From Pseudobutyrivibrio sp. (GTDB lineage: Bacteria; Bacillota; Clostridia; Lachnospirales; Lachnospiraceae), in NCBI GenBank assembly GCA_021442555.1, contig JABUSV010000046.1, positions 1-39,511 on the forward strand: a DNA stretch of 39,511 nt, in the 5' to 3' direction. Positions 6,635 through 13,612 of this stretch are shown here, one piece after another. The position numbers and the translations under genes are program-made. Each line of letters opens with the position of its first letter. Within the stretch, counting starts at the first letter, position 1. The notes below the pieces were generated by a model. The model was not told where the DNA came from. It was given only the letters and a program-made list of their open reading frames with translations, and ran no database searches.

Positions 6635-7663
6635 ATGATTAGAGTAGCAATGTTTGATACTAAATCGTATGATGAGGATTCATTTAGAAAAAATTGTCCA
6701 GACGAAGTGGAAATTACATATTTCCCAGTAAAATTAAATAAGGATAGCGTAATTCTTGCCAATGGGTTTGATGCTGTATGTACTTTTGTAAATGATACTG
6801 TAGATGAGGAAGTGGCAAATAAGCTTTATGATTACGGGGTTAAAATGATTGCCTTAAGATGTGCAGGTTTTGATAGTATAGATGTGAAAGCTTGCTATGA
6901 AAAGATTTGCGTGGTTAGAGTTCCTGCTTATTCACCAGAAGCAATTGCAGAGCATGCAATTGCCCTTCTTATGACTTCCGTAAGGAGGATTCACAAGGCA
7001 TACAACAGAACCAAAGAATTCAACTTTAGTTTAAATAATCTGGTGGGATTCAATCTTTATGGAAAGACTGTGGGGGTAATAGGAACAGGTAAGATTGGAA
7101 AAGCTTTTATCAACATCTGCAATGGATTTGGAATGAGAGTACTGGCATATGATAAATTCCCTTCTGAGGGAATAAAGGCTGAGTATGTTTCGTTGGATGA
7201 ACTATTAGCCCAAAGTGACATTATCTCACTACATTGTCCGTTGACTGATGAAAATACGCATATGATAAACAATGGTACAATTGCAAAGATGAAAAAGGGT
7301 GTGATTATTCTAAACACGTCGCGTGGTGGACTTATCAATGCAAATGATTTAGTTGATGGAATAAAGTCCAGACAGATTGGCGCTGCTTGTATGGATGTTT
7401 ATGAGGAAGAAGGAGATTTGTTCTTCAATGATAAATCAGGACATATTCTTGACGATGATGTTATGGCAAGGCTTCTTACAATGCCAAATGTAATAGTGAC
7501 ATCCCATCAGGCTTTTTTGACGGAGGAAGCGCTGGATAATATTTCATCTACCACAATAGATAATATTGTAAGATTTTTTAAATATGGTGAAAGGTCAAAC
7601 GAGGTATGTTACCGTTGCGAAAAGTATGACGAATGCAGCAGTAAGAGAGTAAAGGGGTGCTAA
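6635..7663 (+). CDS. ldhA: D-lactate dehydrogenase / D-2-hydroxyacid dehydrogenase with Cys-rich C-terminal tail
   Basis: VGVIGTGKIG Rossmann motif, SLHCPLTDENTHMIN, NTSRGGLIN, TSHQAFLTEEA; RBS aggaggtg before ATG. Confidence 0.85.
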   Translation: MIRVAMFDTKSYDEDSFRKNCPDEVEITYFPVKLNKDSVILANGFDAVCTFVNDTVDEEVANKLYDYGVKMIALRCAGFDSIDVKACYEKICVVRVPAYSPEAIAEHAIALLMTSVRRIHKAYNRTKEFNFSLNNLVGFNLYGKTVGVIGTGKIGKAFINICNGFGMRVLAYDKFPSEGIKAEYVSLDELLAQSDIISLHCPLTDENTHMINNGTIAKMKKGVIILNTSRGGLINANDLVDGIKSRQIGAACMDVYEEEGDLFFNDKSGHILDDDVMARLLTMPNVIVTSHQAFLTEEALDNISSTTIDNIVRFFKYGERSNEVCYRCEKYDECSSKRVKGC

Positions 7664-8150: not shown

Positions 8151-8413
8151 ATTAAGGGTTCTTTTTATTTAGCTTATATCCAAGGATGCCATTACAATAA
8201 ATGCAAAAACTGTGCCACTTGCACCACACAACGCGGTGTTGGGAAGTAATCCCAATGTTCCGATAGTAATTACCTTTGGATCATCGCTGAAGATTGCCAC
8301 AAGAGTAGCGGCAAATTGTATGCCTAATAAGGCGGTGGTTGCCAAAAATACCTCGCCTACATCAAAGGTAAAAAAGGAAGGCCTGTCTTGCAGATATCAA
8401 GAAATACTGCTGG
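8151..8413 (-). pseudogene. Deletion-scarred relic of a rhomboid-MATE gene pair: four collinear segments matching 11679-11709, 11858-11925, 12526-12643 and 12863-12901
   Basis: By-eye alignment: 8151-8181 (31/31), 8182-8249 (about 61/68), 8252-8369 (about 105/118), 8375-8413 (about 35/39); same order and orientation as the intact copy. Confidence 0.93.
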
Positions 8414-8497
8414 CTTATATTAATAGAAGAACAGTATTTAATACAGATAGATAGATACAAAAAATGGACACAATTATAAAAAAGTCTAAAAAGCAAC

Positions 8498-8525
8498 TTG
8501 ACAAAAAAAGTGAGTAATATATAAT
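8498..8525 (+). promoter_or_regulatory. Sigma-70-type promoter for the bacteriocin peptide gene: TTGACA-N16-TATAAT
   Basis: Consensus -35 at 8498-8503 and -10 at 8520-8525. Confidence 0.75.
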
Positions 8526-8629: not shown

Positions 8630-8935
8630 ATGGGATTTAAAAACAAACTATTAGGTTTTGCAGTTGCTATTATGTTAGTAGGAGTGCCTACAACGGTATT
8701 TGCAATTGATGTAGCTGGTGGTGATTTGTATTATAATGGCGGTCAAACAGATGAAAAAGTATATTCTGAAATCGGTCGTAAAGAGGGCGTAGAGCGCAAT
8801 TATATGGTTAAAGCAACTGTAAAGGTTGGAAATAACACATATACAAGTGGATACAAAAAAAACTATGCAAAAAAAGAGGCCAAAAGAGTTTGGTATGCAA
8901 ATGAAAAATCTTATTATGATTATTACCCATATTAA
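8630..8935 (+). CDS. Lactococcin 972-family bacteriocin precursor
   Basis: Sec-type signal peptide (MGFKNKLLGFAVAIMLVGVPTTVFA), GG...YNGG...VYSE...ATVKVGN..YTSGYKK..AKKEAKRVWYANEKSYYDYYPY; family-typical downstream partners. Confidence 0.75.
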   Translation: MGFKNKLLGFAVAIMLVGVPTTVFAIDVAGGDLYYNGGQTDEKVYSEIGRKEGVERNYMVKATVKVGNNTYTSGYKKNYAKKEAKRVWYANEKSYYDYYPY

Positions 8936-8963
8936 ATGTGGAAGTATGAGTGTTTAAGAATAG

Positions 8964-8992
8964 GCGGGGCTGATTGCCCCGCTTGTTTTTTA
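8964..8992 (+). terminator. Rho-independent terminator between precursor peptide and export genes
   Basis: GCGGGGC-tgatt-GCCCCGC-TTGTTTTTT. Confidence 0.85.
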
Positions 8993-9063
8993 AAATAAAG
9001 CATAAAAGATGGAGTAGTTTTATTCATATTATTTATTATTACATTTTGAAAGGGAGTTAAAGT

Positions 9064-11016
9064 TTGAGGAATTTTTTGAAGATATTTATATTCCTGGAAG
9101 TATTGTTGTTTACATATATTTTTAATACATCAATATATAGTATATACGAAAAAAATCACGTAGCTAATGAAGAATTAGCAGGATATGTGATAGTAGGTGC
9201 ATCACCAGAAATACTTGATGATTTTTATACATTGTTTATGGAATATAATTCAGGAAATAAATTGGAGATCGTTAATAATGCTATTTCTTCGACAAATCAA
9301 TCTGAATATGATATATATTGCTATCCAATCAACAAGTTCAAACAAAAGCAACCTATATCTCAATCTATTTTATTTCGATATCATGAACTAGAAAGAGAAG
9401 ACTATTTAGACAGTGTTGGAATATTCTATTCAGATTTAACGGATGATGAAATATCAGAAATGTCTTCACGACTATCTGTCTCGATAAATAATTATGAGGA
9501 TGAATCGATTCCCTACAGTATGATTTTACAACTAAGTTTTATGAACTATGTAATTTTGTTTATCGTGATACAAACAATCTATTGTATTTATACATCCTAT
9601 AGTATGAAAAAAATAGGTATTAAAAAGAGCATGGGATTTTCTACGTTACACATTTTAAAAGAACAGATTATACGTGTAGCAAAGATATTTGTATTAGGTT
9701 ATTTATTTATTTTTATTCTGCTTAACTTATATTATGTATTCACAAATCGATATGATTTTTCATATATAGCATTTAGTCTAATCTATTTTGGTATTGTTTT
9801 GATCATTAACATAATCAGTGTATTAAACACAAGTATTATGTTCAGACTAATTTCCTTAGAGTCGATGATTAAAAATAAGACCTTAAATAATAGTGTTAAT
9901 ATGATAGTTCAGGTCGTGAAAGTGGGATTATCAGTAATAATTGCAGTTACAATTATTATGCTGTTAAAACATGTAGATTCATATAAGCGAAGCCAACAAG
10001 ACGTGTTAGATTTTGAGTATTTGGAGGGATATTATACCGCTAATGGTTTCAATTCTTTGGAATATGATTATGCAATAAATAATCCTGATATTCTACAAGA
10101 GTATTCAGATAATACATTGAAACTATACAACAACAAATCTTTACTATGCGATTCTAGCAATTACAGTGATATTCAGTCATCAGGTAATGATTTTGAAAGC
10201 GCGATTATTGTGGCCAATTCTAATTATTTGAATGAATTTTCAAACATTTTGTTTAATAAGGAGGCATTGGGGAAAGAAATAATCAAAGAACCTACGGTAT
10301 TTATCCCGTATAAGTATAAGAATGATATAAATCAAATAAAAGCATACATAGATGAAGAGTATTATAGATTGATGAATTATAATCAGTTTTATGGATTGCA
10401 GAAAGAAAAGGATTATTTAGATGATTATGACATAGTTTACATGGATGATGATTCAAGTTTAAAGGTCAACATGGAAAATGGTTTTTCAGATGTGACTGAC
10501 CCTATTATTATTGTTGATACTGGAGATTTTGCAGGGCTTTACTATTTGGATTGTTTAAATATGAGATGTTTACTATTTCAAATGAAATCAAGGAATGAAT
10601 TTTCTTCACTGTTATCTAAGTGCTCCATGGATAAATTGGTTATAGCTGGAACATTACTTACTCCATATATGATGGAATTTGAAAATACAACATTTGTTCT
10701 TAAAACAATTGTTCTTTTTACACTGGTATTTATTATATCTTTAATCTTTATTATTTATATAGCAAATTATGTGGATATCATTGTAAATCGAAAAAAATAT
10801 GCAATAAAAGAAATCATGGGATACTCACATTTTTATATATTGAAGAATAGGTATGTTTTCTTTGGCATCAGCCTGATAATAATTACCGCCTTGATACCTA
10901 TCAATAAATTTTTTGTTTGTTTTATGATAATTTTGAGTATTGATTGTATTTTCTGTGAGCTGCTTTATAAAATGTACATCATAAATGCTTTATACGAAAT
11001 TGAAAAGGGGGCATAG
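9064..11016 (+). CDS. Bacteriocin-associated integral membrane protein (DUF1430-like), MacB/FtsX-like permease architecture
   Basis: Ordered as N-terminal helix, extracytoplasmic domain, multiple TMs, second domain, TMs; overlaps an ABC ATPase gene context. TTG start with gggag upstream. Confidence 0.75.
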   Translation: MRNFLKIFIFLEVLLFTYIFNTSIYSIYEKNHVANEELAGYVIVGASPEILDDFYTLFMEYNSGNKLEIVNNAISSTNQSEYDIYCYPINKFKQKQPISQSILFRYHELEREDYLDSVGIFYSDLTDDEISEMSSRLSVSINNYEDESIPYSMILQLSFMNYVILFIVIQTIYCIYTSYSMKKIGIKKSMGFSTLHILKEQIIRVAKIFVLGYLFIFILLNLYYVFTNRYDFSYIAFSLIYFGIVLIINIISVLNTSIMFRLISLESMIKNKTLNNSVNMIVQVVKVGLSVIIAVTIIMLLKHVDSYKRSQQDVLDFEYLEGYYTANGFNSLEYDYAINNPDILQEYSDNTLKLYNNKSLLCDSSNYSDIQSSGNDFESAIIVANSNYLNEFSNILFNKEALGKEIIKEPTVFIPYKYKNDINQIKAYIDEEYYRLMNYNQFYGLQKEKDYLDDYDIVYMDDDSSLKVNMENGFSDVTDPIIIVDTGDFAGLYYLDCLNMRCLLFQMKSRNEFSSLLSKCSMDKLVIAGTLLTPYMMEFENTTFVLKTIVLFTLVFIISLIFIIYIANYVDIIVNRKKYAIKEIMGYSHFYILKNRYVFFGISLIIITALIPINKFFVCFMIILSIDCIFCELLYKMYIINALYEIEKGA

Positions 11017-11018
11017 AT

Positions 11019-11669
11019 ATGTCATTAATTTCATTAAATAATATAAAGAAAGGTTATGATAAGAACCAAGTTATTCTAGATGATTTGTCGTTGGAAATCG
11101 ATAAGGGTGAATTTATTGGGTTTGTCGGAAAAAGTGGTGCGGGAAAGACTACTTTATTAAATGTAATAGGATTGATAACGGATATATCTGAGGGAGAGGT
11201 CGTTATTGACAATTGTATAATTAAATCAATTAATTGTAAAAAAGCAATGCTCTTGAGAAGATATACTTTGGGGTATCTGTTTCAAAATTATGGATTGATA
11301 GAAGATGAAAGTGTGCTTTGGAATTTAAAATTGGCTCTTGAGTATAAAAAGGTTCCCCGAAAAGAAAAAGAAAAAATAATCAAAGATAACCTGGAGCAAT
11401 TTGATTTAATACATTTAGTTGATAGGAAAGTATATCAGCTAAGTGGTGGTGAACAACAAAGAATTGCTATTGTTAAACTGATACTGCAGGGAAGCCAAAT
11501 AATACTGGCTGATGAACCAACCTCAGGACTTGATAAGGATAATGAAACGATAGTAATGGAGCTGCTAAAGGAGTTAAATGAAAAAGGTACCACCATAATA
11601 ATGGTAACGCACAATATGAACTTGTGTAGTTATTTCTCGAGAGTAATCAATGTGGAAGAGTTTAAATAA
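11019..11669 (+). CDS. ABC transporter ATP-binding protein, bacteriocin-export type
   Basis: Walker A GKSGAGKTT, signature LSGGEQQRIAI, Walker B IILADEPTSGLD, H-loop VTHN. Confidence 0.9.
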   Translation: MSLISLNNIKKGYDKNQVILDDLSLEIDKGEFIGFVGKSGAGKTTLLNVIGLITDISEGEVVIDNCIIKSINCKKAMLLRRYTLGYLFQNYGLIEDESVLWNLKLALEYKKVPRKEKEKIIKDNLEQFDLIHLVDRKVYQLSGGEQQRIAIVKLILQGSQIILADEPTSGLDKDNETIVMELLKELNEKGTTIIMVTHNMNLCSYFSRVINVEEFK

Positions 11670-11698
11670 AAAGAACCCATTAAGGGTTCTTTTTATTT
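11664..11698. terminator. Perfect 15-bp bidirectional terminator between convergent ABC and rhomboid genes
   Basis: AAATAAAAAGAACCC-ATTAA-GGGTTCTTTTTATTT; overlaps the 3' ends of both genes. Confidence 0.9.
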
Positions 11699-12279
11699 AG
11701 CTTATATCCGATTACACTTCCTATGAGACCACCAACTATGTGTGCGGTGTTGGATATGTTGTCTGTAACAAATATTCCCTGGAAGATTTCCTGTCCCACA
11801 TAGAGTATTACTACAAGAATAAAAGTAAGCGGAATCTCTTTATCGCTAAAGCTTGTGAAGGATGCCATTACAATAAAAGCAAAAACTACGCCGCTGGCAC
11901 CACACAACGCGGTGTCGGGAAATAACAGATTGTTAATTAATCCTGTTACTAAGGCTGTTATAAGAATGATTTCAAGCATTGCTTTGCTTCCATATTTTTC
12001 TTCAAGCAGTGGACCAATCAGTAACAGATACATCATATTTCCGATATAGTGTTGGAAATTAGCGTGACCCAATACGTGGGTAAATAATCTGACATAGGTC
12101 AGGGGACTGGTCCAATACCTGCCATAGGTCATGAACGCTATTTCTGTAATTTTATTTCCAGTCATTAATCCCAGAAGCAGGACCACAAAACTGATGATTG
12201 TAAAGCTTAATACAACAGGTGAGTTAAATTTGATTTTGATTTTCATTATTATTATTTGCCTCCATAATTTTAAGTTCAT
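11680..12279 (-). CDS. Rhomboid-family intramembrane serine protease
   Basis: HANFQHYIGNMMYLL, catalytic GASG, HIVGGLIG. Alternative start at 12246 (MKIKIKFNSPV). Confidence 0.88.
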   Translation of the reverse strand: MNLKLWRQIIIMKIKIKFNSPVVLSFTIISFVVLLLGLMTGNKITEIAFMTYGRYWTSPLTYVRLFTHVLGHANFQHYIGNMMYLLLIGPLLEEKYGSKAMLEIILITALVTGLINNLLFPDTALCGASGVVFAFIVMASFTSFSDKEIPLTFILVVILYVGQEIFQGIFVTDNISNTAHIVGGLIGSVIGYKLNKKNP

Positions 12280-13612
12280 GCAAGAATTTGACAGTATAAG
12301 GAATGGCAGTCAATGTTGTTAGTATATCAGATATTGCCTGAGATATCTGCACACCCAGTAATCCCAATATTGATGAGAGGATTAACAGTGTAGGGATAAA
12401 ATATAAGCCGCTTCTTAACATTGATAAGAGTGTGGCTGTTTTTACCCGTCCAACACTTTGAAACATCATGTTGGAGCATACAGCAACAGGCTGAAATACC
12501 TGGCCAAAAAACTGCACGGTTAGTGCCAATGTTCCGATTGTTATTACCTTAGGGTCATCTCTGAAGATTGCCACAAGAGGGGCAGCAAATTGTATGCCTA
12601 ATAAGGCGGTAGTTGCCAGGAATACTTCGCCTACACCAAAGGTGAATAGAAAGGCCTGACGTACTCTGTTGTATTTTTTGGCTCCATAGTTGAATCCACA
12701 TACGGGCTGGAATCCCTGTCCGATTCCAAGGGTGGTTGCAAAGGTAAAATAGCAGATTCTATTAACAATGGACATGGCAGCAACAGCAGCATCTCCATAT
12801 ACGCTGGCGCATTCGTTCAAAAGCATGGTAGAGATACTAGACAGACCCTGACGCATCATTGCAGGAAGACCCGTCTTGCAGATATCAAGAAATACCGTTG
12901 GTTTAAAGGATACATTTTTGATAGAAAGCTTTGCCAGGGTTTTTCCTCTTAAAAACATGGAAAAAAGTAAACTAAAGCTTAGATACTGGGAAAACGCAGT
13001 TGCTATACCAGCACCCATTACTCCCATGTTAAATTTGCTCATCAAAAGCCAGTCACCAAATATGTTGATGAGACCTCCTGATGTAAGACCTATCATGGCG
13101 AAGGCTGCCTGTCCTTCGTAACGCAATATATTGTTGAGTACACAGCTGCAGCACATGGCAGGAGCTGCCAGCAAAATGAATATTGCATAGGTTCTGGCAT
13201 AAGGAAGTATGGTATCTGTGCTTCCCAAAAGATACATTAGAGGGTCTAAAAATATAAGACCTGCTATTGTGATAAACAAACTGGTGGCAAGGGCTGAAAA
13301 GAATGCAGTGGAGGTGTAGCAGGAAGCTCTGTCAATATCCTTGGCTCCAAGTGCTCTTGAGCATATACTTCCTGAACCCTGCCCATACATAAAGCCAAAG
13401 GCTTGAATTATAGCCATTAAACCAAATACAATTCCGATGGCGCCAGAAGCGCTGGTTCCATATTTTCCAACAAAAAATGTATCAGCTACGTTGTAAATAC
13501 TGGTAACTAACATACTGATTGTTGTTGGAATACCAAGCTTTACTATCAGAGATGGTATTGGGGTTTCTGTCATTTTTTTGTATTGTAAGGTCTGTTGATC
13601 TGCTAAAGACAT
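12224..13612 (-). CDS. MATE-family multidrug/Na+ efflux transporter
   Basis: IPTTISMLVTSIYNVADTFFVGKYGTSASGAIGI and twelve-TM MATE pattern. Confidence 0.92.
   Translation of the reverse strand: MSLADQQTLQYKKMTETPIPSLIVKLGIPTTISMLVTSIYNVADTFFVGKYGTSASGAIGIVFGLMAIIQAFGFMYGQGSGSICSRALGAKDIDRASCYTSTAFFSALATSLFITIAGLIFLDPLMYLLGSTDTILPYARTYAIFILLAAPAMCCSCVLNNILRYEGQAAFAMIGLTSGGLINIFGDWLLMSKFNMGVMGAGIATAFSQYLSFSLLFSMFLRGKTLAKLSIKNVSFKPTVFLDICKTGLPAMMRQGLSSISTMLLNECASVYGDAAVAAMSIVNRICYFTFATTLGIGQGFQPVCGFNYGAKKYNRVRQAFLFTFGVGEVFLATTALLGIQFAAPLVAIFRDDPKVITIGTLALTVQFFGQVFQPVAVCSNMMFQSVGRVKTATLLSMLRSGLYFIPTLLILSSILGLLGVQISQAISDILTTLTAIPYTVKFLHELKIMEANNNNENQNQI

What the first reader, a model, noticed from the sequence alone, without database searches (positions are those of the whole stretch)
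8151..8413. Four-piece deletion relic of a rhomboid-MATE gene pair next to the bacteriocin cassette
Seen directly: 8151-8181, 8182-8249, 8252-8369 and 8375-8413 align in order and orientation with 11679-11709, 11858-11925, 12526-12643 and 12863-12901. The relic lacks about 148, 600 and 219 bp at three internal junctions and compresses about 1.2 kb into 263 bp. The rhomboid piece still encodes LCGASG, the catalytic serine motif. Inference: this was once a complete rhomboid-MATE locus that decayed by successive internal deletions, a clear fossil on a compact chromosome.
Basis: partly seen in the sequence, partly recalled or inferred. Interest (0 to 1): 0.75.

Follow-up and report, generated by a model that had tools for sequence, protein, structure and literature searches.

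The report
Deletion-shrunken relic of rhomboid-MATE genes
A 267-base stretch beside a horizontally acquired bacteriocin cassette is the shrunken remains of a second copy of the neighbouring rhomboid-protease and MATE-transporter genes, an ordinary bacterial gene fossil, though an unusually easy one to read.

Summary
Window 8151-8417 aligns in order and orientation with 11679-12905, the 3' two-thirds of a rhomboid + MATE gene pair, in the four pieces given (100, 90, 87 and 88% identity). I refine it. The second junction holds a fifth, 12-nt piece (8245-8256 = 12357-12368), so there were at least four deletions, and three junctions lie at short direct repeats in the intact copy. MATE differences fall mainly at third codon positions (15 of 19), so the copies diverged as working genes. 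The relic then broke residues near-invariant in relatives (rhomboid F120L and V131T, MATE R351S). It has no evident start codon for its frame, no RNA-family match, no unusual folding and no counterpart in 28 congeners or 396 sampled genomes of the family. It is a pseudogene relic, not a functional RNA. The two copies flank, in direct orientation, an AT-rich lactococcin-972-type cassette related to Enterococcus faecium plasmid genes. This suggests, without proving, that a second, divergent copy of the pair arrived with the cassette and one copy was then lost. No intermediates were found. Bacterial pseudogene erosion by deletion is well documented, so interest is low.

The parts
8151..8181 (-). 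relic piece 1: last codons of rhomboid (GYKLNKKNP*) and right half of its terminator hairpin; equals 11679-11709
   Evidence: 31/31 identical; translation
8182..8249 (-). relic piece 2: rhomboid codons around the catalytic GASG motif; equals 11858-11925
   Evidence: 61/68 identical; F120L and V131T break residues near-invariant in 30 relatives
8245..8256 (-). relic piece 3 (new here): 12 nt AGTAATCCCAAT from inside the MATE gene, 12357-12368, bridging the second junction; overlaps its neighbours through microhomology A(A/G)TAA and CCAAT
   Evidence: only other copy in the window is at 12357; 5/5000 shuffles, 0/370 real windows
8252..8385 (-). relic piece 4: MATE codons of about residues 324-362; equals 12526-12658 with a 1-nt indel near 8370
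   Evidence: 117/134; 11 of 14 ungapped differences at third codon positions
8375..8417 (-). relic piece 5: MATE codons of about residues 237-250; equals 12863-12905; overlaps piece 4 through an imperfect 11-nt repeat AGRAAGRCCYG
   Evidence: 38/43; junction sequences
8498..8525 (+). 12/12 consensus sigma-70-like promoter of the bacteriocin cassette, outside the relic
8630..8935 (+). probable lactococcin-972-type bacteriocin precursor, 101 aa with a signal-like N-terminus
   Evidence: no Pfam or NCBIfam match; 41% to an ORF just upstream of a homologous transporter gene in another genome (L181)
9064..11016 (+). bacteriocin-associated integral membrane protein
   Evidence: 59% over full length to E. 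faecium plasmid proteins; weak TIGR01654
11019..11669 (+). bacteriocin-export ABC ATPase
   Evidence: TIGR03608 L_ocin_972_ABC 242 bits, cut-off 255; 74% to E. faecium plasmid
11680..12279 (-). intact rhomboid protease gene
   Evidence: PF01694 E 2e-24
12224..13612 (-). intact MATE transporter gene
   Evidence: PF01554 E 2.5e-51; TIGR00797 above cut-off

Best explanation
8151-8417 is a dead remnant of a second copy of the adjacent MATE-rhomboid gene pair. The two copies diverged to about 88% identity while both were working genes (supported by the codon pattern). They came to lie in direct orientation on either side of an AT-rich, lactococcin-972-type cassette; arrival of the cassette together with a divergent copy of the pair is inferred. 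The redundant left copy was inactivated and lost about 1 kb in at least four internal deletions, three of them at short direct repeats, as expected of replication slippage or RecA-independent end joining (inferred from the junctions). It now has no function.
For: Collinear same-strand pieces. A fifth 12-nt piece inside the missing interval. Short repeats at three junctions: A(A/G)TAA, CCAAT, AGRAAGRCCYG. MATE differences 15/19 at third positions, P 6e-5 against 1/3 and P 0.005 against a rough relic-always-neutral expectation of 0.47. Relic-only losses at near-invariant residues: rhomboid F120L (F in 30/30), V131T (V/I in 30/30), MATE R351S (R in 78/80). The 75-aa open frame 8169-8396 has no evident start. 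No Rfam hit in the relic and folding z of -0.2 and -0.9. Not found in 28 other species of the genus or 396 sampled genomes of the family, apart from one 64-nt match to another genome's rhomboid gene. Cassette GC 26-30% against 34-44% in the flanks and 59-74% identity to E. faecium plasmid genes.
Against: No intermediate or intact two-copy state was found, so the route is inferred. Piece 1 is 31/31 identical while the rest is about 88%, which suggests constraint or a later exchange with the intact copy. The first junction shows no microhomology. Rhomboid-piece differences are not third-position biased (3/7). The host genome is an 84%-complete assembly in 248 contigs and read support could not be checked.
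Confidence: 0.88

Rival explanations
1. The compact sequence is a functional small RNA or regulatory leader of the bacteriocin cassette.
For: It lies directly upstream of the cassette promoter at 8498-8525.
Against: No Rfam match in the relic, folding no better than shuffles. No relative in the genus, the family sample, phages or plasmids. The promoter starts about 80 nt beyond the relic's end.
Confidence: 0.04
2. The relic came from one complex template-switching event rather than stepwise deletions.
For: Several junctions carry microhomology, which such events also leave.
Against: All pieces stay in the original order and orientation, which stepwise deletion predicts and template switching does not require.
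Confidence: 0.12
3. The relic is a misassembly of reads from related strains in a metagenome bin.
For: The host assembly is fragmented and 84% complete. Piece 1 is an exact 31-nt repeat.
Against: The other junctions share only 5 to 11 nt, shorter than usual assembly k-mers, and lie in the middle of a contig of at least 39.5 kb.
Confidence: 0.04

Closest known systems
Bacterial pseudogene erosion by deletional bias (Mira 2001 and Kuo & Ochman as cited in PMC5447742; Kuo & Ochman 2010, PMC2916853)
   Same: An inactivated copy shrinks by successive deletions while an intact homologue remains; accumulation of deletions is named as the main force eroding bacterial pseudogenes (PMC2916853).
   Different: This example has lost about 78% of the matched span yet keeps enough to map each deletion; [quoted passage not shown]
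Lactococcin-972-type bacteriocin cassette (precursor, integral membrane protein, ABC ATPase)
   Same: Gene order and family matches of the transporter proteins, with close relatives on E. faecium plasmids.
   Different: The cassette is a neighbour, not part of the relic; its precursor has no Pfam or NCBIfam match.

Membership tests
Deletion-eroded pseudogene | Collinear homology to an intact gene | tested here: met
Deletion-eroded pseudogene | Loss of the coding capacity of the parent genes | tested here: met
   About 960 of 1227 nt of the matched span are missing, together with both start regions; no evident start codon for the remaining 75-aa frame
Deletion-eroded pseudogene | Relaxed constraint after inactivation | tested here: met
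   Three relic-only changes at near-invariant residues; few sites, so modest strength
Deletion-eroded pseudogene | Intermediates or an intact orthologue of the second copy in relatives | tested here: not met
   None in 28 congeners or 396 family genomes; one genome per species only, so this does not exclude them among strains
Functional structured RNA | Conserved compact sequence or structure across genomes | tested here: not met
Lactococcin-972-type cassette | Family match of the ABC ATPase and membrane protein | tested here: inconclusive
   TIGR03608 242 bits against cut-off 255; TIGR01654 39 bits against 189; gene order and plasmid homologues agree

The most novel reading that the evidence does not exclude
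The relic marks how the bacteriocin cassette was fixed: the cassette arrived with a divergent rhomboid-MATE copy, leaving direct repeats able to recombine and eject it, and the shrinking of one repeat locked it into the chromosome.
Probability: 0.15. Interest if true: 0.4.

Novelty: new member of a known kind. Interest (0 to 1): 0.2.

Why it matters
It is a clean single-locus record of pseudogene decay, with the intact partner 3.5 kb away, so each deletion and its repeat can be named. It also hints at how a foreign bacteriocin cassette entered this chromosome. It changes no general understanding.

Tried and rejected
Functional RNA: no Rfam match and no unusual folding. Relic as part of a mobile cassette module: absent from plasmids and phages, and the other cassette loci checked carry no rhomboid or MATE nearby. 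Further homology beyond the relic edges: none above shuffles. Ancestral layout from congeners: only pflB is shared in the regions fetched upstream of it in 20 congeners, so they do not show the state before the cassette. The hydroxyacid dehydrogenase has no close match in the genus. A conserved rhomboid-MATE pair in relatives: none of 30 rhomboid loci (about 1.5 kb flanks) has a MATE gene, and no MATE locus outside this genome has the rhomboid.

Full report
Observation. The four pieces exist at the stated coordinates, in order and on the same strand, with E-values of 4e-42 to 4e-10. The right edge extends to 8417. No further homology is seen on either side of the relic, and the window holds no other duplication of this kind.

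Refinement of the junctions. Junction 1 (11709 to 11858) has no clear microhomology. Junction 2 contains two bases that the four-piece model does not explain. The 12-mer AGTAATCCCAAT at 8245-8256 occurs once more in the window, at 12357-12368, inside the missing interval and in the right order. A match this long covering the two orphan bases arose in 5 of 5000 shuffles and in none of 370 other real windows. It also explains the G at 8246. Junction 2 is therefore two deletions, of about 435 and 160 bp, at A(A/G)TAA and CCAAT. Junction 3 lies in an imperfect 11-nt repeat, AGAAAGGCCTG at 12648 and AGGAAGACCCG at 12863. Repeat-associated deletion is shown by the sequence; the enzymology is inference.

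Timing. In the MATE pieces 15 of 19 differences are at third codon positions (P 6e-5 against one third). A rough model in which the relic was neutral ever since the copies separated predicts about 47% and is disfavoured (P 0.005 for MATE, 0.019 for MATE and rhomboid together). The copies therefore diverged mostly as working genes. Afterwards the relic changed residues that are almost invariant in relatives: rhomboid F120L, rhomboid V131T next to the GASG motif, and MATE R351S. The intact copy keeps the common residue at all three. The numbers are small and the rhomboid piece alone shows no codon bias (3 of 7).

Function. The 75-aa frame that happens to join MATE to rhomboid codons (8169-8396, minus strand) has no evident start codon. 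The relic has no Rfam match and folds no better than shuffled sequence on either strand. It was not found in 28 other species of the genus, in 396 sampled genomes of the family apart from a 64-nt match to another rhomboid gene, or in plasmids or phages. The genus search also gave two marginal hits (E 7e-5 and 8e-4, 24-32 nt) that were not pursued.

Surroundings. Between relic and intact pair lies a cassette: a 101-aa secreted-peptide gene with a perfect sigma-70-like promoter, an integral membrane protein and an ABC ATPase. The latter two are 59% and 74% identical to E. faecium plasmid proteins. The cassette's GC is 26-30%, against 34-44% around it. Its membrane protein is absent from the other 28 genomes of the genus and found in only three others of the family sample. 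The rhomboid has one good match in the genus (61%, G004) and the best MATE match found elsewhere is 68%. No other rhomboid-MATE pair was found, so the relic and intact copies share an unusual gene order and must derive from one pair.

Interpretation. How the second copy arose is open: a cassette arriving with a divergent copy of the pair, for example by single-crossover integration, would place direct repeats on either side of it as observed, but no genome showing the earlier state was found.

Novelty. Pseudogene erosion by deletions is established for bacteria (PMC2916853, PMC5447742). This is a well-preserved example of a known kind.

Noticed in passing
8630-11669: AT-rich lactococcin-972-type bacteriocin cassette, absent from other species of the genus and closest in the collections searched to E. 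faecium plasmid genes; the precursor peptide matches no Pfam or NCBIfam family.
   Followed up: partly
6635-7663: D-2-hydroxyacid dehydrogenase with best NCBIfam score to VanH-type D-lactate dehydrogenases (242 bits, cut-off 540) and no close match in the genus; no vanA or vanX partner was looked for.
   Followed up: no
11669-11689: Hairpin AAAAAGAACCC-ATTAA-GGGTTCTTTTT between the convergent ABC and rhomboid genes, probably a shared terminator; the relic begins exactly in its loop and lacks the left arm.
   Followed up: partly
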